IMG/VR virus record: IMGVR_UViG_3300021378_000188
Location: 1 to 21,636 of that record
Reading direction: 5' to 3' (one strand)
Source of the DNA: a virus
DNA length: 21,636 bases
How positions within the stretch are numbered: position 1 is the first letter of the stretch; each line of letters starts with the position of its first letter. The notes beneath the pieces were generated by a model. It saw only the letters and a program-made list of their open reading frames with translations, was not told the origin of the DNA and did no database searches. Both the position numbers and the translations under genes were made by a program. Below, piece by piece: positions 410 through 20,266 of this stretch.

Positions 410-1703
410 TGCGAGGGCCGAGGCTCTCGCGGTCCTATCCGATGCTGAGGCAGAAGCCCTTCTATTCGACTGGCGCGGCTTTCTTGCGCGACCCGCGCAG
501 CTTATGCCAAGCGGCGATTGGGATATTTGGCTGGTCCTGGCAGGGCGCGGCTTCGGTAAGACCCGAACCGGCGCCGAGGCGGTCAGGGAAGAGGTTGCAG
601 CCGGACGCGCTGGACGAATAGCGCTGATCGCTGAAACGGCGGCAGACGCGCGCGACGTGATGGTTGCGGAGTTGTTGCGCATCTATCCGCCGAATGAGCG
701 ACCGATCTACACCAAAAGCAATCGGTGCGTTGAGTTCGCCAACGGCGCGAAGGCATTCACATACAACGCGGTTGAACCTGACCAGCTTCGTGGCCCGCAA
801 CACGACTTCATCTGGCACGATGAGTTAGCCAAGTGGCGCTATGCAAGGGAAACCTGGGACCAAGCGCAGTTCGGCTTGCGTCTTGGCCGTCACCCGCGCC
901 AGATCATCACGACAACGCCGCGCCCGATCGAACTGCTAAAGGCGATCGTTGCCGGCACCGAGGGCAAGGTGGAAATCACGCGCGGTTCAACGATGGACAA
1001 CCGGGCAAACCTCGCAGCAAACTTCATGGAGCGCATACAGGCGCGCTATGCGGGCACTCGGCTTGGTCGGCAGGAACTGAACGCGGAAATCCTGAGCGAC
1101 CTTCCCGGCGCGATCTGGACGCAGACAGCGATTGATATTTACCGCGTGTCCGAACCCGTTGGCCTCGGTCGCGTCGTGGTGGCTGTCGATCCGGCGGTTA
1201 CGAACACAGAAAACAGCGACGAGCATGGGATAATCGTTGCGGGCATCGGCGCCGACCAAACCGGCTACCTGATCGAGGACGCCAGCATGAGCGGCGCCCC
1301 GATCGACTGGGCGCGCAAGGTTTCGCAGATGGTTCACAAGCATGGCGCGGATGGCGTTGTCGTCGAGGTCAATCAAGGCGGCGACATGGTGGCGCATACG
1401 CTGCGCACGGTGTCGCCTAACCTCAACATCATCGAAGTGCGGGCGAGCCGTGGCAAACACGTCAGGGCCGAGCCTGTTGCCGCACTCTACGAGCAAGGCC
1501 GCATCCGCCATGTCGGGCAGTTTGCGGAACTGGAAAATCAAATGACGCAATTTACGAATGAGGGCTATCAGGGCGAAGGAAGTCCAGACCGCGTTGACGC
1601 GCTGGTTTGGGCATTCTCGCATCTGTTCCCTGACATGGTTGATAGCGTTCCAGACGTGTCGCGGTTTGAAATGCCTGCGGCTAAGGGGTGGCTGAATGGA
1701 TAA
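369..1703 (+). CDS. terL: Terminase large subunit (ATPase-nuclease packaging motor)
   Basis: This is the motor that translocates DNA into the procapsid and cuts it. Numbered from the TTG at 369 (444 aa), the ATPase has a Walker A GRGFGKTR near residues 59-66, a Walker B IWHDE with acidic pair 151-152, and a coupling motif TTTPRP near 181-186. The C-terminal RNase H-like nuclease shows VVVAVDPA (Asp 274), VVVEVN (Glu 333) and SPDRVDAL (Asp 407 and 410), so all expected acidic residues are present. The start is uncertain. An ATG at 300 is in frame but would overlap the small subunit by 110 bases and adds an Arg/Pro-rich stretch unlike terminases. The TTG at 369 leaves a 41-base overlap but has only a weak ribosome site. 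The end overlaps the portal gene by 8 bases. Confidence 0.95.
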   Translation: MQSVAERLAALGPDARAEALAVLSDAEAEALLFDWRGFLARPAQLMPSGDWDIWLVLAGRGFGKTRTGAEAVREEVAAGRAGRIALIAETAADARDVMVAELLRIYPPNERPIYTKSNRCVEFANGAKAFTYNAVEPDQLRGPQHDFIWHDELAKWRYARETWDQAQFGLRLGRHPRQIITTTPRPIELLKAIVAGTEGKVEITRGSTMDNRANLAANFMERIQARYAGTRLGRQELNAEILSDLPGAIWTQTAIDIYRVSEPVGLGRVVVAVDPAVTNTENSDEHGIIVAGIGADQTGYLIEDASMSGAPIDWARKVSQMVHKHGADGVVVEVNQGGDMVAHTLRTVSPNLNIIEVRASRGKHVRAEPVAALYEQGRIRHVGQFAELENQMTQFTNEGYQGEGSPDRVDALVWAFSHLFPDMVDSVPDVSRFEMPAAKGWLNG

Positions 1704-3699
1704 GAAAGCGCTCCTTGAACTCGCACGCAAACGCATGGCGGATGCGGTGTCTGCGGATCGTGAAAACCGTGAAAACGGGATGGACGATCTGGCCAAGCTG
1801 ACCGGCGATCAGTGGCCCGATGACATTCGGTCAGCGCGCGAGTCCGAGGGCAAGCCGTGCTTGACCATCAATCGCTTGCCGCAGTTCGTGCGCCAGGTGA
1901 CGGGCGATATTCGCAGGCTGAACCCGGCCATCAATGTCACGCCGGCAGACAGCAACAGCGACGAGGACACGGCTGAGATTATCGAGGGGCTTATTCGTCA
2001 GATCGAATACCGCTCCGATGCTTCAAGCGTCTACGAGGGTGCGACGGAATGCGCCGCTGCCGCGTCAATCGGCTGGTGGCGCGTCACGCACGATTGGGAA
2101 GATGATGATAGTTTCGATCAGGAAATCCTGATCAAGGCAATCCGCAATCCGTTCTCGGTCTATTGCGACCCGGACGCGCAGATGCCGACGCGCGAAGATG
2201 CGACTTGGCTGTTCATCACTGAGCAGATGAGCGAAGACGAGTTCAAGGAGGCCTATCCCGGCAAATCGGCGGTCAGCGCTGAATATGACGGCACGACTGA
2301 CGGGCTGGAGAACTGGCGCAATTCCGGCACCGTTGTTGTTGCCGAATACTACTGGCAAGAGCCTGTAACCAAGACCATCTATCAGATGGCAGACGGCAGC
2401 GTGATTGGCGAGGATGAGTTCGTTGCGCCGATGAATGCCGTGCGCAAGCGTAAGGTGGACACGCACCGGGTCATGTGGGCCAAGGTGAGCGGCACTGACG
2501 TGCTCGAAGGTCCGACCGAACAGGCCAGCAAGTCGATCCCGGTCATCGCTGTCACCGGCGAGGAATGGCACATCGGTGATCGCGTCCACCGATCCAGCGT
2601 GATCCGGTACGCCAAAGACGCGCAGCAGATGTACAACTATTGGCGCAGTGCTTCGACCGAACTTGTAGCGCTGCAACCCAAGGCGCCTTTCGTTGTCACG
2701 GCAAAGCAAGTGGCGGGCCTGGAACGGTTCTGGAACGAAGCCAATTCGTCCAACCGCCCATATCTGCCCTACAACGCAGACCCCGCTGCACCGGCTCCAC
2801 AGCGCGCCTTGCCGCCGGTCAGTTCGCAAGGCATGTTGCAGGAGATTGCCAGCGCAGCCGAGGACATGAAGGCGACGACTGGCATTTACGATGCCGGCCT
2901 CGGTCAGCGGTCAAACGAGCAATCCGGCGTGGCCATTCGTCAACGCCAGATGGAAAGCGACGTGTCCACGTCGATCTATTCCGACAACATGGCTAAGGCG
3001 ATCGCCCACACGGGCCGCATCATCATCGAAATGATCCCGTCGATTTACGACACGAAGCGGGTCATTCGCATTCTTGGCAAGGACGACGCGCAGAAGATGG
3101 TTCCGGTCAATGACATGCAACTTGCGGTGGGCGAACAGGGCCTGATGCAAGTTCCTGTCAACGATCTGACTGTCGGCAAGTACGATCTGCGGGTTTCGGT
3201 GGGGCCGAACTACTCGACGCGGCGTCAGGAAACGCAGGAGGGGATGCTTGGCTTTATTCAGGCGTTCCCGATGGCGGCGCCTGTCGTTGGCGATCTGGTG
3301 GCGAAGGCGATGGACTGGCCCGACGCTGACCAATTTGCTGAACGGCTCAAGAAAACCCTGCCGCCGGGAATGATCGACCAAGGCGACCTGTCGCCAGAGG
3401 AACAGCAGGCGCAGATGCAGGCTCAACAGCAGCAGATGCAAGCCCAGCAAGCCCAGATGCAAGCGCAACAAGAGGCGCAGGCGGCTCAACAGGCGGCGTT
3501 TCAGATCGAGATGCGCAAGGCCACGGCAGAGGCCACAGAGGCCGAGGCAGACGCCACCAAGGCGGGCCTTGAGGTCATGGACACACAGCTAGAACTTGCC
3601 GCCAAGAGCGGCCAACTCAACGACGCGGTTGCCCTGCTGATCCAGCAGGAAGTCGCTCGTGCGCTGCAAAGCGTGATGGGGCAACAGCCCCGAATGTAA
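1696..3699 (+). CDS. Portal protein, P22 type
   Basis: Forms the dodecameric ring at one capsid vertex through which DNA enters and leaves. The 667-residue length and N-terminal part (GDQWPDDIRSARESEGKPCL followed by TINRLPQFVRQ and VTGDIRRLNP) match the P22-like portal family. A segment near residues 390-430 reads TTGIYDAGLGQRSNEQSG, and a central wing/stem region precedes it. From about residue 560 to the end the protein is almost entirely helical, including four 7-residue Gln/Met/Ala repeats, then Ala/Glu-rich helix. P22 portal also ends in a long helical barrel, so this fits a portal tube extending into the head. ATG at 1696 is preceded by AAGGGG (1683-1688) at good spacing and overlaps the terminase end, suggesting coupled translation. 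Confidence 0.93.
   Translation: MDKKALLELARKRMADAVSADRENRENGMDDLAKLTGDQWPDDIRSARESEGKPCLTINRLPQFVRQVTGDIRRLNPAINVTPADSNSDEDTAEIIEGLIRQIEYRSDASSVYEGATECAAAASIGWWRVTHDWEDDDSFDQEILIKAIRNPFSVYCDPDAQMPTREDATWLFITEQMSEDEFKEAYPGKSAVSAEYDGTTDGLENWRNSGTVVVAEYYWQEPVTKTIYQMADGSVIGEDEFVAPMNAVRKRKVDTHRVMWAKVSGTDVLEGPTEQASKSIPVIAVTGEEWHIGDRVHRSSVIRYAKDAQQMYNYWRSASTELVALQPKAPFVVTAKQVAGLERFWNEANSSNRPYLPYNADPAAPAPQRALPPVSSQGMLQEIASAAEDMKATTGIYDAGLGQRSNEQSGVAIRQRQMESDVSTSIYSDNMAKAIAHTGRIIIEMIPSIYDTKRVIRILGKDDAQKMVPVNDMQLAVGEQGLMQVPVNDLTVGKYDLRVSVGPNYSTRRQETQEGMLGFIQAFPMAAPVVGDLVAKAMDWPDADQFAERLKKTLPPGMIDQGDLSPEEQQAQMQAQQQQMQAQQAQMQAQQEAQAAQQAAFQIEMRKATAEATEAEADATKAGLEVMDTQLELAAKSGQLNDAVALLIQQEVARALQSVMGQQPRM
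3409..3492 (+). repeat. Four 21-bp tandem repeats encoding Gln/Met/Ala heptads in the portal
   Basis: Four consecutive 7-residue units, AQMQAQQ, QQMQAQQ, AQMQAQQ and EAQAAQQ (portal residues about 572-599), are encoded by imperfect 21-base repeats. The third bases vary, so selection acts on the protein rather than a recent slippage event. The 7-residue period suits a helical coiled coil in the portal barrel. Confidence 0.8.
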
Positions 3700-3738: not shown

Positions 3739-4593
3739 ATGGACCTACTTACAATGACCGACGATGATCTGGGCGCCTCTGAGGCACCCGATATGGAAGT
3801 CGTGCAATCTGAGGCCGAGCAGGCCGAGGCGTCGGAAGCGACGGAAAGCACAGAAGGGCAGACCGAACAGGCGCCCGCCGAGGTGGAGTCAGAAGACGAC
3901 ACCAAGGAGAAGACCAGCAGGCACCAGCGCCGGCGCGCTGAACTTGCTAAAATACGCGAGGAACGCGAACGGCTTCAAGGCCAGCTTGCCGAGGTCGAAA
4001 AGGCACGCAAGCGCGCGCTGTCCTTCGCAGAATCCACACGACCCCCGACTGAAAGTGAGTTTGCCAACTACGACGAATTCCTGCTGGCCAAAGGTGCGTT
4101 TATCGCAGGCCGGGAACAGGATCGCCGTGCGGTTCGGCAGATTGACGAACAGGCGACCGAGGCGAAAACGAAACTGCAAGCCCTGGAGGCGCAGCAGCTG
4201 CATGAACTGGATGCCAACTGGCAAGACCAGACTGCGGAGGCGCGCAAGCGGTATGCGGATTTTGACCGCGTCGTTACGAATCCGAATCTGACGATCACGG
4301 ATCACATGGCCATGATTATCAAGGCCACAGATGCATCGGCGGATGTTGCCTACCAATTGGGGATGAATCCGGGTCTGGCCGAGCGCATCGCTCGCATGGA
4401 TCCACTTTATCAGGCGATCGAACTGGGAAAGCTGTCAGCAGCCGTTTCCAGTGCAACGCCTAGAACGCAATCACGCGCACCCGAACCCATTCGTCCTGTC
4501 AAGCCGAGCGCTGCGGGCACAGTGGACCCCGACAAGATGAGCCATAAGGAATGGACAGCTTGGCGAAATTCGGGCGGCGTTCCCGGTCAATAA
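3739..4593 (+). CDS. Putative scaffolding protein
   Basis: Lies between portal and coat genes, the scaffold position in P22-like phages. The 284-residue product has a strongly acidic, disordered N-terminus (Glu/Ala/Ser/Thr-rich, about residues 1-60), a basic patch RHQRRRAELAK, long charged helices with coiled-coil character (about 65-165), and a C-terminal part ending in DKMSHKEWTAWRNSGGVPGQ. A mostly helical, charged protein with a C-terminal basic/helical binding segment is typical of scaffolds that guide coat assembly and then leave. There is no sequence motif that proves it, so the call is mainly by position and character. ATG at 3754 is an alternative start five codons in. Neither start has a strong ribosome site. 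Confidence 0.7.
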   Translation: MDLLTMTDDDLGASEAPDMEVVQSEAEQAEASEATESTEGQTEQAPAEVESEDDTKEKTSRHQRRRAELAKIREERERLQGQLAEVEKARKRALSFAESTRPPTESEFANYDEFLLAKGAFIAGREQDRRAVRQIDEQATEAKTKLQALEAQQLHELDANWQDQTAEARKRYADFDRVVTNPNLTITDHMAMIIKATDASADVAYQLGMNPGLAERIARMDPLYQAIELGKLSAAVSSATPRTQSRAPEPIRPVKPSAAGTVDPDKMSHKEWTAWRNSGGVPGQ

Positions 4594-4605: not shown

Positions 4606-5838
4606 ATGGCTAATACGTTTCTGACGCCATCCGTTTTCGCTTCCGAGGCGCTGATGCTCCTCGAGAACGAAATGGTGATGGGCAACAAGATCCACACGGA
4701 TCTTTCCAAGGAATTCGCCATGGTTGGCGATACCATCAACATCCGCCGCCCCACCTCGTACCTGGGTCAGGCGGACAACCTGGATATCACGTCCTATCGT
4801 GAGGACATTACCCAGGGCAAAACCACGATCAGCATGAACAAGACGCTTTCCATCCCGGTGGATATTGGCGTGCTTGATGCAACGCTGTCGTTTGATCGCG
4901 TCGTGGAGGACGTGATCAAGCCGGTGATCGTCCGCATGAAGGATAAGATCGAGTCTGACATTGCCTCGCTCTATTCTTCGCTGTACTGGTTCAGCGGCAC
5001 TCCCGGCACCGTTCCCGGCACCTTCAAATCGCTGGGTTCTGCCCGCGCGATCATGACGGATGCGGGGATTCCGATGGACGGGCGCGCAGCCTTCCACTCG
5101 ACCGACGCCATCATCGAACTGGCCGATGGCCTCAAGGGCCTCAACGTGACCGACAAGGCCAAGACAGCGCTGGAAATGGCGAATATCGGCAAGTACGCCG
5201 GTTTCGAAAACTACGAATCGGTTCACATCCCGGTCCACACCGTTGGAACTGCGACCGGAACCCCGCTGGTCAACGGCGGCTCGCAGAACACGACCTATGC
5301 GCTTGCTAAGGACTCGTGGTCGCAAACCCTGAACACCGATGGTTGGACCAACTCCATCACCGGCATTCTCAAGGCTGGCGACATCATCACGCTTGCAGGC
5401 GTGTATGCGGTCAACCCCGTCTCCAAGGCTTCGACCGGGCGCCTCCAGACGTTCACCGTGTTGGCAGATGCCAACTCTGGTGCTTCGACTGGCCCGGCTG
5501 CGCTGACCATCAGCCCGCCGATCATCACGTCTGGCGCATACCAGACCGTGTCGGCGGCTCCGGCTGACAACGCGGCTGTCACCGTCAAGACTGGCACCGG
5601 CGGCACCGGCTACCGTCAATCGCTCCTGTTGAACCCGAAGGCTTTCGCGCTCGTTTCGCGTCCGCTCAAGATCAGCAACGCGGCTGGCGTCAAGACCAGC
5701 ACGAAGTCGGGCAACCGGGTGACTATCTCCTGCACCGAGTTCGTCGATGGCAACACTCTGGCGCACACCATGCGCTTCGACATGCTGTATGGCGTCAAGT
5801 GTATCGACCCGCGTTTGGGCCTGCGCCTGACGAACTAA
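4606..5838 (+). CDS. Major capsid (coat) protein, P22 coat type
   Basis: Builds the icosahedral shell. The N-terminus (MANTFLTPSVFASEALMLLE), then VGDTINIRRPTSY and KTLSIPVDIGVLDATLSFD, is characteristic of the P22 coat protein family, and the length (410 aa against about 430 in P22) agrees. Residues about 215-330 are Gly/Thr/Ala-rich and beta-like, beginning around GTATGTPLVNGG. They occupy the place of the inserted (I) domain of P22 coat. The C-terminal segment (HTMRFDMLYGVKCIDPRLGL) returns to the conserved HK97-like core. AAGGA at 4592-4596 sits 9 bases before the ATG, and the gene follows the scaffold stop by 12 bases. A strong stem-loop lies just after the stop codon. Confidence 0.93.
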   Translation: MANTFLTPSVFASEALMLLENEMVMGNKIHTDLSKEFAMVGDTINIRRPTSYLGQADNLDITSYREDITQGKTTISMNKTLSIPVDIGVLDATLSFDRVVEDVIKPVIVRMKDKIESDIASLYSSLYWFSGTPGTVPGTFKSLGSARAIMTDAGIPMDGRAAFHSTDAIIELADGLKGLNVTDKAKTALEMANIGKYAGFENYESVHIPVHTVGTATGTPLVNGGSQNTTYALAKDSWSQTLNTDGWTNSITGILKAGDIITLAGVYAVNPVSKASTGRLQTFTVLADANSGASTGPAALTISPPIITSGAYQTVSAAPADNAAVTVKTGTGGTGYRQSLLLNPKAFALVSRPLKISNAAGVKTSTKSGNRVTISCTEFVDGNTLAHTMRFDMLYGVKCIDPRLGLRLTN

Positions 5839-5892: not shown

Positions 5893-6285
5893 ATGACGCG
5901 AATGGTTGACATTGTGGGCCGCGCCTATCGCAAGATCGCGGTTGGCGGCACTGGCGAGGCCATCGAGGCCGAATATGTGGCCGAGGGCGTCGATACCCTG
6001 AACATGATGCTGCACGAGTGGAAGCTGCACGGCGTCGATATTGAGCATACCACCCTTGACGCGGCAGACACCTTCCCGCTAGGCCCGGAGTTCGAAATGG
6101 GCACGGTTTATCTGCTGGCCGAAAAGCTGGCACCCGACTATTCCATCCCGCAGGCATTCAGCACGCGCGAGTTTTTCGACGCGATCAGGGCCGCATACCT
6201 GACCATCGAAGCCGCGGCCATGCCGCCTGCGATGATCTGGCTACCGTCGCGTCATGAGCGCGACCGCACCGCCGGGCTGCTCTGA
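5893..6285 (+). CDS. Tail accessory / packaged-DNA stabilisation protein, P22 gp4-like
   Basis: In P22, gp4 binds under the portal after packaging and starts the tail machine. This 130-residue protein (P22 gp4 is about 166) begins MTRMVDIVGRAYRKIAVGG, followed by AEYVAEGVDTLNMMLHEWKL, matching the helical N-terminal part typical of gp4-like neck proteins, in which a bundle of helices packs against the portal. It is a little short at the C-terminus, ending in SRHERDRTAGLL. GGGGTG (5882-5887) precedes the ATG. Its stop overlaps the start of the gp10-like gene by one base (TGATG), a coupling arrangement fitting two proteins that assemble in sequence. Confidence 0.85.
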   Translation: MTRMVDIVGRAYRKIAVGGTGEAIEAEYVAEGVDTLNMMLHEWKLHGVDIEHTTLDAADTFPLGPEFEMGTVYLLAEKLAPDYSIPQAFSTREFFDAIRAAYLTIEAAAMPPAMIWLPSRHERDRTAGLL

Positions 6286-7721
6286 TGAAAGTCGAGTTTG
6301 TCGGCCAATCCGTCAGGGATGGCGACAACGCGCAATCCGACCCGTCGCGGCTGGTGAACTTCTACCGCTACAACCTGGGCGGCACTCCGGTTCTGCGCAG
6401 CGTCTTGGGCACCGAGGCTTTTGCGGAGATTGACGCGGTTTTTCTCCGCGCGCTGCATGAATACGATGGCAAGGTTTTCGCGGCGCTTGGCGGCAATCTG
6501 TACAAGGTTCGCAAGTCCGGCGTGTCGGTCCTGATGGATTCGATCACAGACAGCGCGCAAACCAGCATATCAGTGAATAACGGGATCATCACGATTGCGG
6601 CTGGTGGCGACTATGCCAATTTCACGGTTGCAGGCGCCAAGACAACGCCAGCGACCGGTGCGTTCAGTTCGGTTGGTTCGGTTGCCTTCCTCGGCCAGCG
6701 CACGATCATCACGGAACTGAACGGGCGGCGCATTAGCTGGTCTGACGTGACTGACCCGGCAACCTTCGACGGCTTCAACTTCGCCACGGCTGAAAGCAGT
6801 TATGACGACATTGTGCGCGGCGTCGTGATCGGCTCGCAGTATTGGGTATTCAAGAAGGAAAGCATCGAACGGTGGTATCTGACCGGATCGGGCGATGCGA
6901 CACAGTTCCTTGCCCCGATCGCAGGCGCATCCCTTGGTCGCGGCCTGAAATCGTTCAACCTGCTGACCACGCTGCCGAATGGGGCGTTCTTCGTTGGTTC
7001 TGATGGCAAGGCTTATATCGTTGGCGAGGGGATGCAGCCGGTATCCACGCGCGGCGTAGAGACCAGCATCAAGACCGACGATCCGACCCACTGCCTGTAC
7101 TATCAGGACGAGGGGCAAGAGTTTTGCGTGATCCGGTTCGGCAATCGCCCGGCTTGGGTGTACGACCTGACCACGGGCGAATGGCATGAGCGCGCCGAGG
7201 CATTCGATCGGCCTTGGTCTGCAATCGCCTCGGTGAAGGCCTGGGGTGATCACTACGTTGGCACTGACACCGGGCTGATCAACCGGCTGGCGCGCGTCAA
7301 TACTGACGTGTCGGGGCCGCTGATCCGGTCTGCTGTGTCTCGGACGCTGGAGTTCGAAGGCAAAGGCCGTGTGATCAGCAACATCACCTTTGCGCCGACA
7401 GTGGGGCAATCGCGCATCATGGAAGCGTCTGAAATATTGGATGCGGGCGGCGGCGAGGCTCTCGACGTTGATGGCGGCGTTCTCGCCATGTACATCACGG
7501 ACCCCGACGCAATTGAGGCAAGGGCGCTGTTCGAAATCAGCAGCGACAGGGGCCAGACGTGGCGCCGTGAGATGTGGCGCGGGCTGGGTCTGCGCGGCGA
7601 GTATGACAAGGTGGTGAACCTTCGCGCCTTGGGTCAGCACCGCAACGCAAATATCCGCATGACCATCTCGGAGCCAAGCGACACGGCCATTGTGTCCACC
7701 GCTGATGTGGTGGTCGCATGA
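6285..7721 (+). CDS. Packaged-DNA stabilisation protein, P22 gp10-like
   Basis: Plugs the neck after gp4 and provides the platform for the tail. The 478-residue length equals P22 gp10 (about 472). The start FVGQSVRDGDNAQSDPSRLV followed by NFYRYNLGG, and repeated beta-rich blocks such as FLGQRTIITELNGRRISWSD and WVFKKESIERWYLTGSGDA, are typical of this family of beta-propeller-like neck proteins. A WVYDLTTGEWHER segment follows near residue 287. No truncation is visible. ATG at 6285 overlaps the gp4-like stop by one base, and its own stop overlaps the next small gene by four bases (ATGA), so 4-10-needle position genes are one translational unit. Confidence 0.88.
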   Translation: MKVEFVGQSVRDGDNAQSDPSRLVNFYRYNLGGTPVLRSVLGTEAFAEIDAVFLRALHEYDGKVFAALGGNLYKVRKSGVSVLMDSITDSAQTSISVNNGIITIAAGGDYANFTVAGAKTTPATGAFSSVGSVAFLGQRTIITELNGRRISWSDVTDPATFDGFNFATAESSYDDIVRGVVIGSQYWVFKKESIERWYLTGSGDATQFLAPIAGASLGRGLKSFNLLTTLPNGAFFVGSDGKAYIVGEGMQPVSTRGVETSIKTDDPTHCLYYQDEGQEFCVIRFGNRPAWVYDLTTGEWHERAEAFDRPWSAIASVKAWGDHYVGTDTGLINRLARVNTDVSGPLIRSAVSRTLEFEGKGRVISNITFAPTVGQSRIMEASEILDAGGGEALDVDGGVLAMYITDPDAIEARALFEISSDRGQTWRREMWRGLGLRGEYDKVVNLRALGQHRNANIRMTISEPSDTAIVSTADVVVA

Positions 7722-7911: not shown

Positions 7912-8799
7912 ATGGGTTTGGAATTGGCAGGCGCTCTTGCGAGCGGCATCATTGGTGCGTTTTCGGCCAATAAGGCGGCGAAGGCACAACAGGCGGCAGC
8001 GGCGGCGCAACTCGGGCTTGAAACGCGGGTTTACGACGAGACAACGGCGCGCTTTGACCCCTATATGCAGGCGGGCAACAACGCGCTTGCGGCATACAAT
8101 TTCGAGAACGGTCTGGGGCCGCGTCCGACATTCGGCGGCGCTCCCTTGCAGGTTTCGCAGTTCAGCGAAACCATTCCCGGCACCGGACAGGGCGGCACTT
8201 ACTACGGCAATCAAGGCGGCATGATCCGCGACCCGAGCAATCCCGATCGGTGGATTATGCCGGGTTCGCAGGACACCCAACGCACCGGCTACCGCGTGGG
8301 CGATCAGGTGTTTTACGACCGCGCGGCTGCCGATGAGTACGCCGCTGCCAACGCGACCGGCGGGCAGGAATATCAGGGCTACCAAGCGACACCGGGTTAC
8401 AACTTCCAGTTGCAGCAGGGCATCGGCGCGATCGACAGCAGCGCCGCAAGCCGTGGCAACCTGTTCAGCGGATCGACCATGAAGGCCGCGCAGACCTACG
8501 GGCAGGGGTTGGCGCAGCAGGACTATGGCAACTACCTGAACCGCTTGCAGGGCATGGCGCAGAGCGGGCAAAGCGCGGCGGGCAACCTGGCCACAGCCGG
8601 GGCGAACTACGCGACCGGCGCCGGCAATGCGCTTGCGGCATCGGGCAATGCGCAAGCTGCCGGATACATCGGCATGGGTAATGCGCTGAACACCGGGATC
8701 GGCAATGCTATCGGGGTGATGAATTATCAAAACATGATGAAGCCGCAACAGCCGACTTGGACGCCGCAACAGATGGCACAGGTTCGGGCGGTCCTGTAA
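7912..8799 (+). CDS. Putative DNA transfer / ejection protein (Ala/Gln/Gly-rich)
   Basis: First gene of the ejection cassette, at the position of P22 gp14/gp7. The 295-residue product starts with a small-residue hydrophobic helix AGALASGIIGAFSA (about 6-19) followed by an Ala/Gln helix. The middle is Gly/Tyr/Gln-rich (about 80-160). The C-terminal half is dominated by Ala/Gly/Gln/Asn helices (GNLATAGANYATGAGNALAA). Proteins of this composition are found inside podovirus heads and are injected with the DNA to form a channel across the envelope. No enzymatic motif is seen. AAAGGA at 7899-7904 precedes the ATG. The exact P22 counterpart cannot be settled from the sequence alone. Confidence 0.7.
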   Translation: MGLELAGALASGIIGAFSANKAAKAQQAAAAAQLGLETRVYDETTARFDPYMQAGNNALAAYNFENGLGPRPTFGGAPLQVSQFSETIPGTGQGGTYYGNQGGMIRDPSNPDRWIMPGSQDTQRTGYRVGDQVFYDRAAADEYAAANATGGQEYQGYQATPGYNFQLQQGIGAIDSSAASRGNLFSGSTMKAAQTYGQGLAQQDYGNYLNRLQGMAQSGQSAAGNLATAGANYATGAGNALAASGNAQAAGYIGMGNALNTGIGNAIGVMNYQNMMKPQQPTWTPQQMAQVRAVL

Positions 8800-8800
8800 C

Positions 8801-10525
8801 ATGGGCAACTTTTTCAGCCGTGAAGCTGGACAGGCTAGAAGCGCGGCACTGAACAACGCGCTTGCGTCCGGTCTGCAATACTACCTTGGGCCTACTGGTC
8901 TGCCCGATCGGCTGAACGCTCTGGGGATGCTGAACCCTGTCAATGACATGGAGCAGGCGGGCCAGAACGCGGAACGGGTTTATCAGGGCGACAACAGCGC
9001 AATCGTGCCGATGCTGACGGACATGGCCACGGTTCTGGCACCGGCAGCGGCTGCGCGCATTGCGGGCGGTTCGGCTGTGAACGCGCTGACGGAAAGCCTG
9101 ACCGGCATCGGTGCGCCGACGCGGCAGGGTGTGGACGACGCGGCGCGGCGGTTTGTGGCGGATGAAAGCGGTGGTGTTGATTTAAACCCTCTGACGTTCT
9201 TTCATGGAACGCCGGATGGTCGAGAAGTCAGGGCATCCGGCGGATTTCAGCCGCGCACCCAAAGCGTCAGCACCATAAGCGATCCGCAGGCATACCAGCG
9301 GGTGCAAGAGGCAATGCAGTCGGCAGAAAATGGTAGTGCCGAATATTTTGCGCTTCTTGACGAGGCTGCGCGGCTGTCAGCTTATGAAAGCATACCAAAG
9401 CCCGTCTTCCTGTCTGACGCGCAACGTGTAGCGAGCACTTATGCTGATGATGCTAGAGCGTTTGACTACCAATCAGCGGTGCCGGAAGTGTTCAGCGCGA
9501 AAACAAACCCGCAGCGCGCCTTTGACGTGGACGCAGGCGGGGCAGATTTTCGTGGGATTAGTCTTGATGCGGTTCGGCGTGGCCTCACTGGCGCGGGTGT
9601 TCCCGCAGGAGACATAGATGATGCGCTATCTCGCTTGCGGCTGGGGCGTTCGGACGGGAAAATATCGACGGATGATCTGACGTTCCTTGCTAATCGCTTC
9701 GGGTTTGAAGCTGTGGACGTTAAGAATGTGCGAGACACTTACAACGCTACAGCGTCGGCTCCAAGGTCAACAGTCCGCATGATGCTGGATCCAAGCCGCA
9801 TTCAGATTGAAGGGCTTGCACCGACCGACCCCGCCACCGCCCGCGCGCAATCCGTTCTAGACATGCTCACATCGGGCCGCGCGTCCGAAGTCACCGACGA
9901 GATGCTTGATCTTGGCGACGGTGCGGCCAATGCGCGGCTGAATGAGTACCTTTTCAACAACTACGACATGCCGATGGACGAGGCATCCCGGATGCAGCGG
10001 GCGGGGGAAATGGGGTTGGTTGACGACCAATTCCACGCAACGACAGCAGACTTTCCTGCATTTAGGCCGAGCGAAACCGGGCTTGCGGGGCGCGGCGTTT
10101 ATACTGGTGATTTCCCGGAGGATGTTGGCGTTTACGCAACGGCAAGAATGGAAGGCACGGACAGAACCGGCTTGAACGTGATTCCGACTCGCGCGCCCGG
10201 ATATGACACCTATGCACCTAATTTAGCGTATTCGCGCGCAGCCGATGCCGACCCGGACTGGCCATATAACGCAACGATGGAAGAAAACATCGCAGGGATG
10301 CGCCGCGTTGCGGGGCGGCTGTCGGATCAAGGTTTTTCGGGGGTTAAAAGCCAACCGGGCGAGCGCGTCACCTTCGACCCCGCTAACATCCGCTCCCGTT
10401 TCGCCCGCTTCGACCCGCGCCTTGCGCACCTTCGCAACCTGTCTGCGGCCATTGGCGGCGGCGCGATGATCGGCAGCTATGAGCCGACCGAGGACGATGT
10501 GCGCGCGTACCTGGAGGGGCTTTGA
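8801..10525 (+). CDS. Putative ejected virion protein with two ADP-ribosyltransferase-like domains
   Basis: A 574-residue protein in the ejection cassette. Residues 1-125 are Ala-rich helices with a hydrophobic stretch (ATVLAPAAAARIAGG) suited to a virion/ejection region. ART-like domain 1 runs from FFHGTPDG (His 135) through VFLSDAQRVASTYADD to VRMMLDPSRI. A linker (ARLNEYLFNNYDMPMDEASR) leads to ART-like domain 2, from QFHATTADF (His 412) through GRGVYTGD and DVGVYATAR to VTFDPANIRSRFARFDPRL. The FHGT/FHAT start, the middle Tyr and the FDPxxI end are the layout of ART domains of phage polyvalent proteins. The sequence coding domain 1 is AT-richer than its flanks. The gene starts 1 base after the preceding stop and its own stop overlaps the lysozyme start. 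Activity and target are unknown. Confidence 0.72.
   Translation: MGNFFSREAGQARSAALNNALASGLQYYLGPTGLPDRLNALGMLNPVNDMEQAGQNAERVYQGDNSAIVPMLTDMATVLAPAAAARIAGGSAVNALTESLTGIGAPTRQGVDDAARRFVADESGGVDLNPLTFFHGTPDGREVRASGGFQPRTQSVSTISDPQAYQRVQEAMQSAENGSAEYFALLDEAARLSAYESIPKPVFLSDAQRVASTYADDARAFDYQSAVPEVFSAKTNPQRAFDVDAGGADFRGISLDAVRRGLTGAGVPAGDIDDALSRLRLGRSDGKISTDDLTFLANRFGFEAVDVKNVRDTYNATASAPRSTVRMMLDPSRIQIEGLAPTDPATARAQSVLDMLTSGRASEVTDEMLDLGDGAANARLNEYLFNNYDMPMDEASRMQRAGEMGLVDDQFHATTADFPAFRPSETGLAGRGVYTGDFPEDVGVYATARMEGTDRTGLNVIPTRAPGYDTYAPNLAYSRAADADPDWPYNATMEENIAGMRRVAGRLSDQGFSGVKSQPGERVTFDPANIRSRFARFDPRLAHLRNLSAAIGGGAMIGSYEPTEDDVRAYLEGL
10513..10519 (+). promoter_or_regulatory. Ribosome binding site deciding the transglycosylase start
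   Basis: GGAGGGG ends 5 bases before the ATG at 10525. An in-frame TTG directly in front (10522) would add one residue, but the ATG has the better spacing and forms the common TGATG overlap with the preceding stop. Confidence 0.7.
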
Positions 10526-11130
10526 TGGACCTGAGACAAGGCATCATAGAAACGGCTGCGGCGTTGGGCATGGACCCGGTGGACCTTGCAACGATCATTT
10601 CCTACGAGACCGGCGGGACGTTTGATCCGACCAAGGCGGGGCCGACAACGCAATGGGGCCAGCATAAGGGCCTGATCCAGTTTGGCGAACCGCAGGCCAG
10701 TCAATACGGTGTGGACTGGAACGATCCGCTTGGATCGCAGCTTGGCGCGAATGGCGCGATTGCCAATTACTACCGCTCAAATGGCTGGCAACCCGGTATG
10801 GGGATGCTTGATGCGTACAGCATTGTCAACGCGGGCGGGCCGGGGCGTTACGGCGCATCCGACGCGAACAATGGCGGCGCACCGGGCGACGTGCGCAACA
10901 AGGTCGAGACGCAGATGGATGGCCATCGCGCAAAGGCAATTGCCCTTCTGGGCGGCTCAGGGGCGGGCTACAGCGGCTCTAACGCTTTGGGCGGTCAGGG
11001 TAGCGCGCAAGACCGTCAGGCCGCTCTGAACGCACTGGCACGCATGGGGCCGCGTCACACGGTCAACCATCTTGACCCCGCTGCATACATGACAGCCGCA
11101 CCGGCGCGGCAAAAACTCGCTTTTAGCTGA
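10525..11130 (+). CDS. Virion-associated lytic transglycosylase / lysozyme-like protein
   Basis: A 201-residue enzyme expected to open peptidoglycan during DNA entry. Residues about 20-55 carry ISYETGG (Glu 28, likely catalytic) and, downstream, HKGLIQFGEPQAS, the Glu-then-GL(M/I)Q layout of SLT/goose-type lysozyme folds. The core ends around YSIVNAGGPGRYGASDANNG, with a Gly/Ser/Gln-rich tail and a C-terminal segment NHLDPAAYMTAAPARQKLAF. There is no signal peptide, fitting a protein packaged in the head rather than secreted. It lies among ejection-protein genes, not in the lysis cassette, so entry is the more likely role. The separate endolysin at 19722 would serve exit. The family is assigned from motifs only. 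Confidence 0.78.
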   Translation: MDLRQGIIETAAALGMDPVDLATIISYETGGTFDPTKAGPTTQWGQHKGLIQFGEPQASQYGVDWNDPLGSQLGANGAIANYYRSNGWQPGMGMLDAYSIVNAGGPGRYGASDANNGGAPGDVRNKVETQMDGHRAKAIALLGGSGAGYSGSNALGGQGSAQDRQAALNALARMGPRHTVNHLDPAAYMTAAPARQKLAFS

Positions 11131-11139
11131 GGACACAAT

Positions 11140-12393
11140 ATGGCTTTGAACCCGAATATCATCCTGGCGGGTCAGCAGCCCGATATTGTCAACGCGCTGG
11201 CCCGATCGACGCAGGCGGCGGGCATGGCGCAACAGGTGCAGCAGGAGGCTAAAAAGAACGCATTTCTTGGCCAGAACGGCGCCGCGCTGATGGCTGGCGA
11301 TCCGCAGGCACTTTCTGGCTTCGCGCGGTTCGATCCTGTGAATGCGACGAACATGCTGGCCAAGCGGCAGGACATGACGATGCAAGCGCAGGCGAATGAA
11401 CGGGATGCATCCAAGTACAAGACCGAAATCGCCAAGAGCATCCGCGAATGGGATGAGGCAACGCTGAAATCCGAACAGGCCCAGATGGACGCCTTCCTGA
11501 AAAACGCGGCGTCTTTCATGATGCAAAACAACCTTGAGGGCGTCAATCAGGTCTTTTCGGAGGCAGGTCTTGGCCCGGTCAAAAACCTTGATGAAGCGCG
11601 CGCTGTTGTGATCCGCAGTAAGGACGCAAGGGATATGATTGAGGCTGAGGCGAAAATGCGCGCGCCACTCTCCCAACCGGGTATGGTTCAAGCTGATATT
11701 GATCGCGGCAACCTTCCACCGGGCACGCCGCTAAGATCGCCCGGCGCAAAGGTCGAAGTGAACAACAACGCGCCAGTTGATGATTCCGAAGCGCTCAAGT
11801 CACTTGACAGGGAAGATGGCAAGGCTTGGGCGGCGATACTGCAAAGCGGCAGGGAGGTTCCTGCCACGATGGCGCAGATTGATCGGCTTGAAGAATTGTT
11901 GATGGACCAAACGACACCGGAAGGCATGGAAGCCGGAATCAAGGCGTGGCTTGGTGATTACGGCCTGCCGACCGAGGGTCTGTCTAATTTGCAGGCCGCG
12001 CGAGCGGTAATCAGCAAGCTAGTACCGGCGCAAAGGGAGCAGGGTTCCGGGTCGCTTTCAGATAAGGACATGCTGGGTTTCCAGCAATCCCTGCCGCGCC
12101 TGATCAACACGCGCGAAGGCAACAAGATGATTATAGACGCGCTTCGCGGCATTCAGGTTTACAACTTGAAGCAGGCTGAAATTGCAAGAGCCGTTGCCAA
12201 TCGTGAAATCACTCTAGCCGAGGGCAGGGAACGGGCTGCGGCAGTGGAAAACCCGCTCGAGGTATTCCGCAAGCCCGGTGCCACCAGTATCGGCGGGTAT
12301 GCAAAAATCACCTCTCAGGAAGAATACGACGCACTGCCGCCCGGGACTGTGTTCATTGACGCAGAAACCGGCAAGACCAAAAGGAAGCCGTAA
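11140..12393 (+). CDS. Putative internal virion / ejection protein, helical
   Basis: A 417-residue, mainly helical protein without a known enzyme motif. The N-terminus reads ILAGQQPDIVNALARSTQAA, then long Gln/Ala/Lys helices (about 30-165) suitable for coiled coils. A loop region (PGTPLRSPGAKVEVNNNAPV, about 190-212) leads to a second helical block. The C-terminus ends with a small beta motif, YAKITSQEEYDALPPGT followed by VFIDAETGK, a tail often found at the end of phage internal and structural proteins. By order it corresponds to P22 gp20 (gene order 7-20-16), but no sequence identity is claimed. TGAGGA (11128-11133) precedes the ATG and overlaps the previous stop. Its stop codon abuts the next ATG. 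Confidence 0.68.
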   Translation: MALNPNIILAGQQPDIVNALARSTQAAGMAQQVQQEAKKNAFLGQNGAALMAGDPQALSGFARFDPVNATNMLAKRQDMTMQAQANERDASKYKTEIAKSIREWDEATLKSEQAQMDAFLKNAASFMMQNNLEGVNQVFSEAGLGPVKNLDEARAVVIRSKDARDMIEAEAKMRAPLSQPGMVQADIDRGNLPPGTPLRSPGAKVEVNNNAPVDDSEALKSLDREDGKAWAAILQSGREVPATMAQIDRLEELLMDQTTPEGMEAGIKAWLGDYGLPTEGLSNLQAARAVISKLVPAQREQGSGSLSDKDMLGFQQSLPRLINTREGNKMIIDALRGIQVYNLKQAEIARAVANREITLAEGRERAAAVENPLEVFRKPGATSIGGYAKITSQEEYDALPPGTVFIDAETGKTKRKP

Positions 12394-14758: not shown

Positions 14759-15661
14759 ATGGCCGATAGGGTTCTCATGTTGCGCGCGACGGATACCAAT
14801 GGCGACATTGTACCGGGCGCGCGGGCATATTTTTACCTGAACAACACTTCAACGCCGGTGGACGTGTACACCGACGCGACGGCGGCGACGGTGCATCCTA
14901 CGCCGGTCCTGGCCGATGCTGACGGGGTGTTTCCTGACGTGTTCACCACTTCGGCACTCAAGCTGATCGTGCAAGACGCGGACGGCGTGACGCTGCCGGG
15001 CTATCCATCGAATAACTGGCACATCTCGCCAACTGTCGGCACGGCGGCTGAACTGGTTGCCTTCGCCCCGATCCCCGGCAACCCGTCAACCGATGTGCAG
15101 GCAGCGATTACGGTCAATACCGAACTTTGGAACACGGTGACGCCTTTCAGCCGGGGCGCACTTGAGGCCACAACCGACTCCGGCTGGCGCGATGAGTTGG
15201 GACTTGGTGTCGCCGCGACCTACAACATCTCGAACGACGGCAACCTTACACTTAGCCGCACGACGCACCTGACCACCGAACACGCGGTCAAGGTGTACGC
15301 TGATGCCGTGGCTGTGGCTGCGCGCGGGTGGGAATACACCAGCGCCGAGCAAGCCATCACAGCGGCCAGCACATTGACGCTGACGCACGGCCTGGGCGCC
15401 GCTCCGACCCGGTTTGGCTTCGCGCTGCGGTGCAAGACCACGGAACACAACTACGCGGTGGGCGACGAGGTGCAGGTAGCCGGCGCGATCGATGACGTTG
15501 CCGCAACCGTGCGTGGCCCGATCTGCATCATCGAGAACGGCAATACAACGGAAATCAAGGTTCTGATCCCTGACGCATTCGTGATTGCAGACAAAACAAC
15601 CTACGCGCGAGCAGCCCTGACGGCGGGCAATTGGCGCCTTATCGTGAGGGCCAGCCGATGA
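14759..15661 (+). CDS. Tail fibre / tail adaptor protein
   Basis: A 300-residue protein at the start of the adsorption module. The N-terminus (VLMLRATDTNGDIVPGARAY, with FYLNNTSTPVDVYTDA after it) resembles the beta-rich particle-binding domains of podovirus fibres that join to the tail hub. A DGVFPDVFTT and PGYPSNNWHI stretch follows. The middle contains VQAAITVNTELW and DSGWRDELGLG. The C-terminal third, from about residue 195 (WEYTSAEQAITAASTLTLTH), with later NGNTTEIKVL and NWRLIVRAS, looks like a compact beta-sandwich tip found at the ends of phage fibres. GGGG at 14749-14752 precedes the ATG. The stop overlaps the next start (ATGA), so fibre and spike are co-translated. The receptor is unknown. 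Confidence 0.75.
   Translation: MADRVLMLRATDTNGDIVPGARAYFYLNNTSTPVDVYTDATAATVHPTPVLADADGVFPDVFTTSALKLIVQDADGVTLPGYPSNNWHISPTVGTAAELVAFAPIPGNPSTDVQAAITVNTELWNTVTPFSRGALEATTDSGWRDELGLGVAATYNISNDGNLTLSRTTHLTTEHAVKVYADAVAVAARGWEYTSAEQAITAASTLTLTHGLGAAPTRFGFALRCKTTEHNYAVGDEVQVAGAIDDVAATVRGPICIIENGNTTEIKVLIPDAFVIADKTTYARAALTAGNWRLIVRASR
15644..15650 (+). promoter_or_regulatory. Ribosome binding site fixing the tailspike start
   Basis: GTGAGGG ends 7 bases before ATG 15658, which overlaps the previous TGA as ATGA. An upstream in-frame TTG (15631) lies inside the fibre gene and lacks such a site. Confidence 0.7.
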
Positions 15662-18600
15662 GCAGCACCATCAATGTCACGCTGAAAAAGGCGGGTGACG
15701 TAACAGCAGCAGACGCAGCCGATTCGGCAACTGATGCCGCGCTGATGGCGGTGGGTGGCGAAACCCGGCGCGTAGATGCTGACGGAGTGCGCGCGTTCCT
15801 TGCTGACAATGCCGCCTTGCCGCTGTCCTATCCGTCGCGTGCGGACCTTGTGACGGCTGTCACCGGCCTTGCGAATGATGCCTATACCGATGGCACTGTT
15901 TTCGTTGTCGGCCCGACGCAATGGCGTTGGTTGGGTGGCAACACGGCTATTCCCGACCTGCCGAACCTTGTGCCGAACCTTCAAGGCGGCTTCAAGGCGG
16001 CAAGCCATCTGCATTTCATGTCCAGCGATGCAGACACTACCGGCAAGACGGCTTCGGAAACATGGTCGCGCAACAACCTGATCCCGGTGGCGCAAGACCT
16101 GCTGACCAACGAGGATGACAAAGGATCCATTCGCATCGGGGATCAAAGCGGGTTTGTGCGCGCGCAGAATGATGCGCTTTACGCGATTGCCTACGAGGTC
16201 GAGGACGGCAAGAAAAAGCGCACTGGCGTTACAGCTGGAACTGAGCGGGTTTCGATCCTTGCAACGCATCTGACCATCAACGATCCCGACGCGGGCGGCG
16301 ATTACATCGGTTATTCGATGACAGCCACCAGCAATACGGGCGCGCTGTCGGGGCAGCGTCTGAGCGTCATTCCGGGGCAGGCAACGGCGAAACTGTTGGA
16401 CGGCGCCGAGGATGGCGTCGACCCATCCGCAGGCACCGAGGGCGCGCAAGCATGGGGCATGTATATCCAAGCCCTGCCGCCGCAGGATAACGACTACACC
16501 AACCCGGATGCGCTGACGCGCGTTGTCGGGACGCTGCATGGCCTCGGCGTCGGAGCCAAGCCGTATGGTTTCCCGGATGCGCCAGACCCGACTGATGGCA
16601 CCGCACACCACAGCTATGACATTGTGTTCGAAGTCGGCTCCGATGCGCCGGGCTCTGAAAGCTATGACGTAATCGCCCGCAAAACCGCCATGATGAAAAA
16701 CGGCACGGCGCGGGATGGCGACCACGGTCGGTCGGGCGCGTTCTTTGGCGCGTGGTGGCAAGGCGTCTGGACCGACTTCATGCGCTTTTCGAGACCGCCG
16801 GAAAAGGCAACCGATGTTCGGATGCTTAACGGCATCAACAACTTTTCCACCTTGCGCACCATTCAAATCCACCAGACCGACGCGGCGGCGTCTGATCGGT
16901 CAACCGATCTGGACACCCTGACCGCCGGGGATATGTTCCTTGCGCTGGTCGAGGATAACGGCTTCCTTGAGCGCGAACCGTCTGTCTGGCTGGTCTATGA
17001 CGTTGAAAAGGTCGGATCGGTCTACAACGTGCGGGTGGTGGTTGACGACCACGGCGCAAAGCTGGCGGTTGATGGCTCTTATGAGTTCCGGTTTTATCGC
17101 AACACCGGCGCGACGGCTGTCTTGCACGGCACACATGCGCAGGTGTTCGTCGGGACGTGGGCCTATACCTACACCAACAGCGCGCCGACTGCTGGCCTGA
17201 TCAGCCACAACACCGCAGCCGAGACAGTGCGGAATAACCGCGCATGGGCTGAAAGCGTTATAGCTGTCCCGCACTCTACCGGCATCGGCGTACATACCAA
17301 GGCGTCGAATGACTACGAGGAAGGCATCGGCACGAACACTGTCGAGGTTCTGGACGCTGTGGCGTTCAGCACGAACGGGGCTGATGACGCTCCGATCATG
17401 ACTGTGCAGGCTGAAACCATCTTTTCGGCTGACTCGAATGATCAGACCATTTTCCGGCGCGGCGGCGCGGACTGGTCAATCTACACCGAAAGCGATGGCA
17501 GCACGTTCAGGGTGGCAAAAGATAACACCCTTGCGGCGGTTATTGATGTGACCGGCACGGCAACGACAAACGCGAATACCGTCATGACGCGGGAAAAGGG
17601 TGACTCTCGTTATCGTTACCTCGTTTCGCCGCGCGACTTCGGGGCGGTTGCGGATGGCGCGACGGACAGCAGCGCAGAGTTGCAGGACTGGCTTGATTAT
17701 CTTGTCGCAAATCCGGGGCGCGTCGGCATCATTGATGGGCGATATGCGATTGCAACGGGGCTTGTCGCAACCGGGCCTGTAACCATCACATCGGGAACCT
17801 GGGGCGATGCCACGACCAGCAGCAGCCAACCGGGGACACCTTCCTGCGCTCTGGTCGCGCTGACTGTCGATATGACTATGCTGACGGTCAAATCCGACAC
17901 TCCCGGCGAACGCATCTGGAACGCCAATCTTGAGTTGTACCTTGATGGCGACAACAAGGCGGCGAATGGCCTGATTATGTCCGGCTGTTTCTTCTCGGTT
18001 GTCCGGTTGGCAGGCGAGCGGGTGCGCGGCACATTCCTTGATTATTCGGACTTGAACGGGATCAGTTCCGGCGCGCATTCGGCATTCAACAAGATTGAAT
18101 ACCTGCGCTACCAAAGCGGCTCTAGCGGCCTGTGCAGGAAGTCAATCGGCCTCAAGATCGACGGCACGACCAGTTCCGGCGGGACGCAATTCGAGGTCGG
18201 GCAAGCGGTCTGCGCCACGCACGAATACAACATTGACACGATCACTGACAGCAGCGGCGCGGCGTTGATTACGACCGACGCGGCGCACGACCTGGCCCCT
18301 GGTGACATGGTGATCGTCTACAACACCGGACTGCATGACCAGACCTGGGCGGAAGTCCTGACCACTCCGACGACCACGACGCTTACTGTTGACGGGCTTT
18401 CCTACGCTGGCGCAGACAGCGGCGGCTTTGTTTCGGCTGGCGTTTCGTTTTGGCTTGGCGACACCGACAGCGGCATATTTCACCGGATGCAGGGGAGTAG
18501 CATGTATGTGGCCGGTGATCGGACTGGTGACAGCCCGGCCCGTCGAGCATTCCGCAAGAACCAGATCGGGCTGTGTTCGGCCAACATCATCCTTGAACCG

Positions 18601-19721: not shown

Positions 19722-20264
19722 ATGAAACACTACGACCTCGCTCGCGCTGAAATCGGCACCTTCGAATGGAAGGACGGGCACAACCCAAAGGTTATTGAAT
19801 ACTTTGCGGAAGTTGGTCATTCGTGGGTGACTGATGACGAGACCGCTTGGTGTGCCGCATTCGTCGGGGCGATGCTGGAACGCAGCGGGATTGCATCAAC
19901 CCGGAAGTTGAACGCGCGTTCATATCTGGATTGGGGCGTCTTGGTGAAACTTGAAGCTGCCGAGCCGGGCGATGTGGTCATATTTTCGCGCGGCGATCCG
20001 AAGGGGTGGCAGGGTCATGTCGCATTCTTTGTCAAGGAAAACGCGACTACGCTAACGGTTCTTGGCGGCAATCAATCAAACCAAGTGATCGAGGCGCGTT
20101 ACCCCAAGGATCAGCTTCTAGGCATTCGGCGCCCGCTTATTGCCAAGCCGTTTGAACCGGCTGCCAAATGGCACGAAACCCCGCACTCTGTGCCAAATGT
20201 AACACAATCGGGCTGGCTCGCCGCGCTCATTGCCGCAGTCGTCGCGCTGTTTCGAAAGGGCTGA
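19722..20264 (+). CDS. Endolysin, Cys/His amidase-peptidase (TIGR02594 / NlpC-P60-like)
   Basis: Cleaves cell-wall peptide bonds at the end of infection. The 180-residue protein has the catalytic layout of this superfamily: WCAAFVGA with Cys 44, GHVAFF with His 99, and LGGNQSN with Asn 117. The LARAEIG start, the NARSYLDWG segment and the PGDVVIF strand before the His are typical. There is no N-terminal signal, so release through a holin is expected. The last 18 residues, after SGWL, form a hydrophobic tail (WLAALIAAVVALF, 165-177) ending in Arg-Lys-Gly, which is unusual for this enzyme and may attach it to the membrane. GAGGTG precedes the ATG, and 2 bases separate the stop from the next gene's ATG. 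Confidence 0.85.
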   Translation: MKHYDLARAEIGTFEWKDGHNPKVIEYFAEVGHSWVTDDETAWCAAFVGAMLERSGIASTRKLNARSYLDWGVLVKLEAAEPGDVVIFSRGDPKGWQGHVAFFVKENATTLTVLGGNQSNQVIEARYPKDQLLGIRRPLIAKPFEPAAKWHETPHSVPNVTQSGWLAALIAAVVALFRKG

Positions 20265-20266
20265 CC

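What the first reader, a model, noticed from the sequence alone, without database searches (positions are those of the whole stretch)
8801..10525. Ejection-cassette protein carrying two tandem ADP-ribosyltransferase-like domains
The sequence shows two copies of the ART-type layout (FHGT at His 135 and FHAT at His 412, each with a mid-domain Tyr segment and an FDP/LDPxxI end) in one protein encoded among P22-like ejection genes. T4 is known to inject the ART Alt to modify host RNA polymerase. ART domains also occur in polyvalent proteins delivered by phages and plasmids. A double-ART protein delivered from a P22-like head could be an early host-takeover or anti-defence effector. The two domains are quite different from each other, so they may have different targets, or one may be a pseudo-enzyme.
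Basis: partly seen in the sequence, partly recalled or inferred. Interest (0 to 1): 0.65.

Follow-up and report, generated by a model that had tools for sequence, protein, structure and literature searches.

The report
Phage effector with two swappable ADP-ribosyltransferases
This gene of a P22-like phage encodes a protein with two different predicted ADP-ribosyltransferase domains, probably carried in the virus particle and injected into the host, and in related phages the enzyme domains of this protein family are swapped in and out like cassettes at fixed points between near-identical flanking sequences.

Summary
Window 8801-10525 encodes a 574-aa protein with two ADP-ribosyltransferase-like (ART) domains, residues 133-336 and ~405-530. 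Neither passes Pfam's cut-off alone. Families built from relatives match ART-PolyVal (best 9e-19 and 1e-8), match each other in profile comparison (97.8%), and the N-domain model matches viral ART-PolyVal models. The first domain keeps invariant H135/Y214/D312, the H-Y-D signature published for polyvalent-protein ARTs; the second has H412/Y445/E521. The gene lies between a gp7-like DNA-ejection gene and further ejection/tail genes. So it is best read as a small phage polyvalent protein, probably virion-delivered; delivery and activity are inferred. Tandem ARTs in such proteins are already published.

Less expected are the relatives. A conserved linker (VTDEML...PMDEASRMARA) and tail (IRSRFARFDPRLAHL.NLSA) bracket the C-terminal ART, and its core is exchanged wholesale. 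L057 and L077 share 96-98% DNA identity over 6.3 kb, including linker, tail and downstream genes, while their ART cores do not align. Breakpoints recur at nearly the same residues across such pairs. 68 loci carry 35 core types, and a second slot upstream varies independently. No neighbouring immunity gene moves with the cassette. This resembles polymorphic-toxin exchange, with two slots in a virion-associated phage protein.

The parts
8801..10525 (+). 574-aa double-ART protein
   Evidence: ORF; coupled to the genes before and after it
8801..9184 (+). N-terminal helical head (res 1-128), no recognised domain; shared by relatives that carry other cargo
   Evidence: phmmer finds it in L087, L064, L052, L070, L086, L049, L079, L012, L081, L003-L005, L016, L065; model all-helical, low to moderate confidence; weak tape-measure-type hit PF10145 E 0.0099
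9197..9808 (+). first ART domain, slot 1 (res 133-336); H135, Y214, D312 invariant in the family
   Evidence: model pLDDT mostly 90-98; BFVD fold matches to ART-PolyVal proteins E 1.2e-7 and 3.6e-5; family matches PF18760 9.3e-19
9851..10000 (+). conserved linker (res ~351-400; EVTDEMLDLGD...NYDMPMDEASRMQRA)
   Evidence: nearly invariant in 38 aligned relatives, invariant M-D..S-R (PMD..SR)
10010..10390 (+). second ART domain core, slot 2 (res ~404-530); H412, Y445, E521
   Evidence: PF18760 E 0.006; 25 of 31 cores in this slot match PF18760; Foldseek PDB best hits include ART-superfamily RES toxins, KptA and pertussis S1, E 0.02-0.6
10391..10522 (+). conserved tail (IRSRFARFDPRLAHLRNLSAA... 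to C-terminus)
   Evidence: ARFD invariant in A4
7912..8799 (+). P22 gp7-like DNA ejection protein, immediately upstream
   Evidence: phrog_598 'DNA ejection' 4.9e-32
10525..11130 (+). downstream gene, weak peptidase/baseplate-hub match
   Evidence: phrog_21656 1.3e-4, phrog_196 8.5e-4; ATG overlaps the ART stop
11140..12393 (+). possible injection translocase (417 aa)
   Evidence: PF16928 Inj_translocase E 0.014, below cut-off
1696..3699 (+). P22-type portal; with TerL 300-1703, scaffold 3739-4593, coat 4606-5838, gp4-like 5893-6285 and gp10-like 6285-7721 it shows the P22-like lineage
   Evidence: P22_portal 7.2e-195, P22 coat 2.3e-53, gp4 1.7e-4; Hc3 4.9e-52; scaffold 1e-39

Best explanation
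The protein is a compact, virion-associated phage effector of the polyvalent-protein kind. A helical head, probably needed for packaging or ejection, carries two ADP-ribosyltransferase domains in tandem. The protein would leave the particle with the ejection proteins and modify host molecules with ADP-ribose from NAD+ early in infection, either to redirect host machinery or to disarm defences. The ART domains sit in exchangeable slots. In relatives, recombination in conserved linker and tail sequence replaces the ART core while the rest of the gene and genome stays the same, so lineages sample different target specificities. Shown by sequence: two ART-family domains, gene position, cassette exchange with fixed breakpoints in relatives, purifying selection on cassettes. 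Inferred: packaging, injection, catalysis, targets, and that the window's own gene is subject to the same exchange (seen at protein level only).
For: Both domain families match ART-PolyVal and each other. First domain: invariant H/Y/D as published for polyvalent ARTs (PMC5512222), confident model, BFVD matches named ART-PolyVal. Second domain: closest PDB folds include ART-superfamily members; the slot-2 profile touches diphtheria toxin, exotoxin A and PARP10 at the H..Y motif, E 0.2-1. Position next to gp7-like ejection gene. Relatives lie beside TerL/tail tubular (L007), TerL and a virion protein (L028), gp4-gp10 (L055) or portal/coat (L108, L078). Exchange: 60 pairs aligned at DNA level in linker and tail but not in the core; L057/L077 96.3% over 1.8 kb and 97.8% over 4.5 kb flanking a non-aligning core. 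Of 109 pairs with linker and tail >80% identical, 48 have cores <40% and 50 >80%. Breakpoints: median 9.0 aa after PMD..SR (IQR 8.7-10.3) and 4.7 aa before ARFD (IQR 6.6-4.0). 35 core types in 68 loci. Within a core type dN/dS 0.05-0.22.
Against: The window's single domains do not pass Pfam's cut-off. The first domain has no convincing PDB fold match (best ART, tankyrase, E 2.3) and the second model is only moderate (pLDDT 72.6). No virion proteomics. The gene's place varies between phages, so it is not a fixed part of the ejection machine. No close relative of the window gene is known, so exchange there rests on architecture: L081 carries the first-domain type in slot 2, and L003-L005 lack slot 1. 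The third active-site residue varies among slot-2 cores, so some may be inactive.
Confidence: 0.72

Rival explanations
1. Virion-carried antibacterial toxin of the polymorphic (MuF-like) type, used to kill competitors or superinfected cells, with the phage or lysogen protected by an immunity protein.
For: Exchange of a C-terminal enzymatic cassette behind a conserved head is the hallmark of polymorphic toxins; some MuF toxins are putative ARTs (PMC5576092).
Against: No MuF domain. The cassette is internal: tail and downstream genes stay 90-98% identical when the core changes, so no neighbouring immunity gene travels with it. With nearly the same patterns that gave 96 confirmed viral loci, 0 relatives were confirmed in 84,980 bacterial and archaeal genomes, unlike MuF toxins of prophages.
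Confidence: 0.12
2. The domains keep the ART fold but act chiefly as NAD+ hydrolases/phosphorylases (RES-like), depleting NAD+ or counteracting NAD-based defence, instead of modifying macromolecules.
For: The best PDB fold matches of the second domain include RES-type NAD-degrading toxins 9r35, 6fkg and 8gug.
Against: These matches are weak (E 0.02-0.6) and mixed with KptA and pertussis toxin; sequence profiles point to ART-PolyVal.
Confidence: 0.15
3. Structural or ejection protein in which the ART folds are decoys or scaffolds without enzymatic function.
For: Head is helical with a weak tape-measure hit; third catalytic position variable in slot-2 cores; second-best PDB fold match of the C-terminal model is a cyanophage pre-ejectosome protein (9k3a_B).
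Against: Invariant H/Y/D in the first domain over 28 sequences at ~26-40% identity to the window; wholesale exchange of the cores and their purifying selection fit activity better than structure.
Confidence: 0.1
4. The exchange pattern is an assembly or metagenome artefact, and the window protein is an ordinary two-ART protein.
For: Relatives are metagenomic contigs; related strains in one sample can be mis-joined.
Against: Breakpoints fall at the same protein positions in 160 ordered pairs from many samples; the same cores recur in different backbones and samples; the genes with exchanged cores are open reading frames; isolate phage DB2 (L007) shows nearly the same linker and tail as metagenomic L073 and L084 with a different core.
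Confidence: 0.05

Closest known systems
Polyvalent-protein ARTs (Pfam PF18760 ART-PolyVal; Tox-ART-HYD2 clade; Iyer et al. 2017, PMC5512222)
   Same: H-Y-D signature in the first domain, family matches for both domains, several ARTs per protein, phage origin, predicted co-injection with DNA; relatives also carry LPD23, PBECR5 and GNAT domains, all polyvalent-protein domains
   Different: Window domains are below the Pfam cut-off; the protein is compact; two defined slots with fixed linker and tail and DNA-level core exchange were not found described in the passages read
MuF polymorphic toxins (PMC5576092)
   Same: Phage gene near head genes; conserved N-terminus with exchangeable enzymatic part, ARTs among them
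   Different: No MuF domain, cassette internal and followed by a conserved tail, no immunity gene moving with it, not found in bacterial genomes here
T4 Alt/ModA/ModB
   Same: ART delivered, or proposed to be delivered, from the phage head to modify host targets
   Different: R-S-E active site, different ART clade (PMC5512222); here H-Y-D and H-Y-E
P22 ejection proteins gp7, gp20, gp16
   Same: Gene sits in the ejection block, directly behind a gp7-like gene, with a helical N-terminal part
   Different: No sequence match to any of them; location within the late block varies among relatives

Membership tests
ART-PolyVal (PF18760) | Profile score above the curated cut-off (31.2 bits) for the protein itself | tested here: not met
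   17.8 bits, E 0.006; relatives such as L009 reach 50 bits
ART-PolyVal (PF18760) | Family-level homology over the domain | tested here: met
   14/28 first-domain relatives and 25/31 slot-2 cores match, best 9.3e-19 and 1e-8; the two profiles match each other 97.8%
Tox-ART-HYD2 / polyvalent ART | Active site His (strand 1), Tyr (strand 2), Asp (strand 5) | tested here: met
   First domain: H135, Y214, D312 invariant; H135 in strand 132-137 and D312 next to strand 304-311 of the model; pocket geometry itself was not measured
Tox-ART-HYD2 / polyvalent ART | Same triad in the second domain | tested here: inconclusive
   H412 and Y445 present; third position is E521, E also in L009, L010 and L059 but variable in the family
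Polyvalent proteins | Two or more effector domains in one phage or plasmid polypeptide | tested here: met
   Two ARTs; related proteins add GNAT, LPD23, PBECR5
Polyvalent proteins | Packaged in the capsid and injected | not testable with these tools
   Only gene position supports it
MuF polymorphic toxins | N-terminal MuF domain | tested here: not met
   No MuF match in Pfam or PHROGs
MuF polymorphic toxins | Immunity gene downstream, linked to the toxin cassette | tested here: not met
   Tail and downstream DNA stay 90-98% identical when the core changes (L057/L077, L062/L080, L075/L080)
T4 Alt-type ART | R-S-E active site | tested here: not met
   Both domains have the HG/HA-T...Y pattern instead
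P22 ejection proteins | Sequence homology to gp7, gp16 or gp20 | tested here: not met
   No Pfam or PHROG match
ADP-ribosyltransferase enzymes | NAD+-dependent transfer of ADP-ribose | not testable with these tools
   needs an assay

The most novel reading that the evidence does not exclude
Several phage lineages, P22-like ones among them, carry a virion-associated effector gene built as a cassette exchanger: unrelated helical heads joined to one or more units of linker - enzyme core - tail, with the core replaced at fixed points by recombination and no immunity gene moving with it. The window protein, with different ART types in both slots, is one state of this system. The diversity would reflect an arms race over host targets or defences.
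Probability: 0.5. Interest if true: 0.72.

Novelty: new variant of a known kind. Interest (0 to 1): 0.57.

Why it matters
Injected ARTs are among the few phage proteins that can act before any phage gene is expressed. If one backbone gene exchanges ART cores while the rest of the phage stays constant, nature has supplied near-isogenic phage pairs differing in one effector. Comparing them would make a direct test of what polyvalent ARTs target and whether they are anti-defence factors, which is still open. It would also put polymorphic-toxin-style variation inside phage particles without linked immunity genes.

Tried and rejected
PDB sequence search with the protein gave nothing, and family profiles gave only weak ART toxin/PARP hits for slot 2. 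PDB fold search of the N-terminal model gave no significant hit; the viral library did. Two scans of bacterial/archaeal genome contigs found no relative. BLASTP between the two domains shows no alignment of their active-site motifs; only profile comparison links them. The two kinds of N-terminal head are not related by profile comparison (probability 0.1%), so the idea of one universal delivery domain was dropped. Filing under T4 Alt or MuF was rejected on tested features. dN/dS for the window against its nearest relatives could not be estimated (dS saturated). Literature searches found no description of fixed-point ART cassette exchange in phage virion genes, but the library holds open papers only; mosaicism of polyvalent proteins is reported for Helicobacter.

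Full report
Observation. The window is a 21.6-kb IMG/VR virus record. Its late genes are P22-like: terminase subunits, P22 portal (7e-195), scaffold, P22 coat (2e-53), gp4- and gp10-like head completion proteins and a gp7-like DNA ejection protein. The gene in question (8801-10525) starts one base after the gp7-like gene, and its stop overlaps the ATG of the next gene.

Are the domains ARTs? For the single protein the evidence is thin: ART-PolyVal at E 0.006 for residues 411-448 only. I therefore gathered relatives: 5 with the protein, 80 with the C-terminal half and 37 with the first domain, plus the isolate phage DB2. The first-domain family (28 sequences aligned) has invariant HGTPD, Tyr and Asp, i.e. 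H135, Y214, D312. This is the H-Y-D signature that Iyer et al. give for polyvalent-protein ARTs (PMC5512222). Half of its members match ART-PolyVal, best 9.3e-19. The model of residues 131-336 has pLDDT mostly above 90. It matches predicted viral proteins named ART-PolyVal at E 1.2e-7 and 3.6e-5, though no PDB entry significantly. For the second domain, 25 of 31 different cores from the same position match ART-PolyVal, and the best PDB folds include ART-superfamily members (RES toxins, KptA, pertussis S1) at E 0.02-0.6. The two profiles, with no shared members, align at 97.8% probability over the Tyr-to-FDP part. I take both as ART-fold domains (about 0.9).

Architecture of the family. The protein is head (1-128, helical), slot 1 (first ART), linker (VTDEML...PMDEASRMARA), slot 2 (second ART) and tail (IRSRFARFDPRLAHL.NLSA). 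L003-L005 lack slot 1; L081/L002 carry the first-domain ART type in slot 2. The window-type head occurs with other cargo in about a dozen relatives. Other relatives use an unrelated head, and L045-L051 have hardly any head. Slot 1 of relatives can hold another ART-like motif (L017, L020, L028, L043), a GNAT domain (L022 by Pfam; L085 by inspection), LPD23 (L010, L075) or PBECR5 (L056), or a ParB-like sequence (L062, by inspection only). L022, L025 and L036 contain the linker unit twice. Double-ART proteins recur; the window is not unique in that.

Cassette exchange. Comparing DNA of loci with the same linker and tail, 60 of 129 pairs align in linker and tail but not in the core between them. 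L057 and L077 are 96.3% identical over 1796 bases up to the linker and 97.8% over 4506 bases from the tail on, with nothing alignable between. Identity of slot-2 cores is bimodal: of 109 pairs with linker and tail above 80% identity, 48 are below 40% and 50 above 80%. Divergence alone would fill the middle. Breakpoints lie at a median of 9.0 residues after PMD..SR and 4.7 before ARFD, with interquartile ranges under 3 residues, in 160 ordered pairs; these pairs are not independent. One linker sequence (DMAKRIL.LRAQGRASEVTDEMMAQADPQYMFANTPLPMDEASRMARA) precedes four different core types. Slot 1 changes independently: slot-1 type A1 occurs with cores B4, B11 and B26, and core B4 with slot-1 types A1, A3 and A4. 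Cassettes of one type evolve under purifying selection, dN/dS 0.05-0.22. No gene next to the cassette changes with it.

Function. Delivery with DNA is inferred from gene position: beside gp7 in the window, between TerL and tail genes in DB2 and L028, and beside portal or gp4/gp10 in others. The polyvalent-protein literature proposes the same (PMC5512222, PMC9503650). The simplest mechanism is NAD+-dependent modification of host molecules at the start of infection. The exchange suggests that targets differ or change under selection. A toxin-immunity role is less likely because no immunity gene moves with the cassette and no relative was confirmed in bacterial genomes.

Known or new. Tandem ARTs and mosaic domain make-up in polyvalent proteins are published, and exchangeable ARTs behind a phage head domain are known for MuF toxins. 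Two internal slots with fixed breakpoints and DNA-level exchange in virion-region genes were not found described. I rate it a new variant of a known kind. For the window gene itself the exchange is inferred from protein architecture, because no near-identical relative was found.

Noticed in passing
L072, L025, L036, L057 and others (protein level): A short spacer, ANASKSTGLL(T/S), follows each exchanged domain and resembles the protein's own tail (AANASPIxGLL), as if repeated spacers between cassettes serve as recombination sites.
   Followed up: partly
L062, L007 (slot 1): Slot 1 appears to hold a ParB/sulfiredoxin-like sequence instead of an ART, by inspection only.
   Followed up: no
L091-L105: The first-domain ART type occurs as a stand-alone 220-260-aa protein, in several cases in contigs of 70-597 kb, and inside very large ORFs (L111, L115).
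   Followed up: partly
window 8801-10525, C-terminal model: The second-best PDB fold match of the C-terminal model is a cyanophage A4 pre-ejectosome protein (9k3a_B, E 0.038); whether that ejection protein holds an ART-like fold was not checked.
   Followed up: partly
window 16536-16618 (-): ARAGORN calls a tRNA-Ala inside the 1203-aa ORF on the other strand (15631-19242); probably a false call.
   Followed up: no
window 15631-19242: A 1203-aa ORF with no PHROG match, in the place of a tail fibre or spike gene.
   Followed up: no
window 19722-21452: Lysis genes (lysozyme-like, spanin) and an HNH endonuclease end the window.
   Followed up: partly
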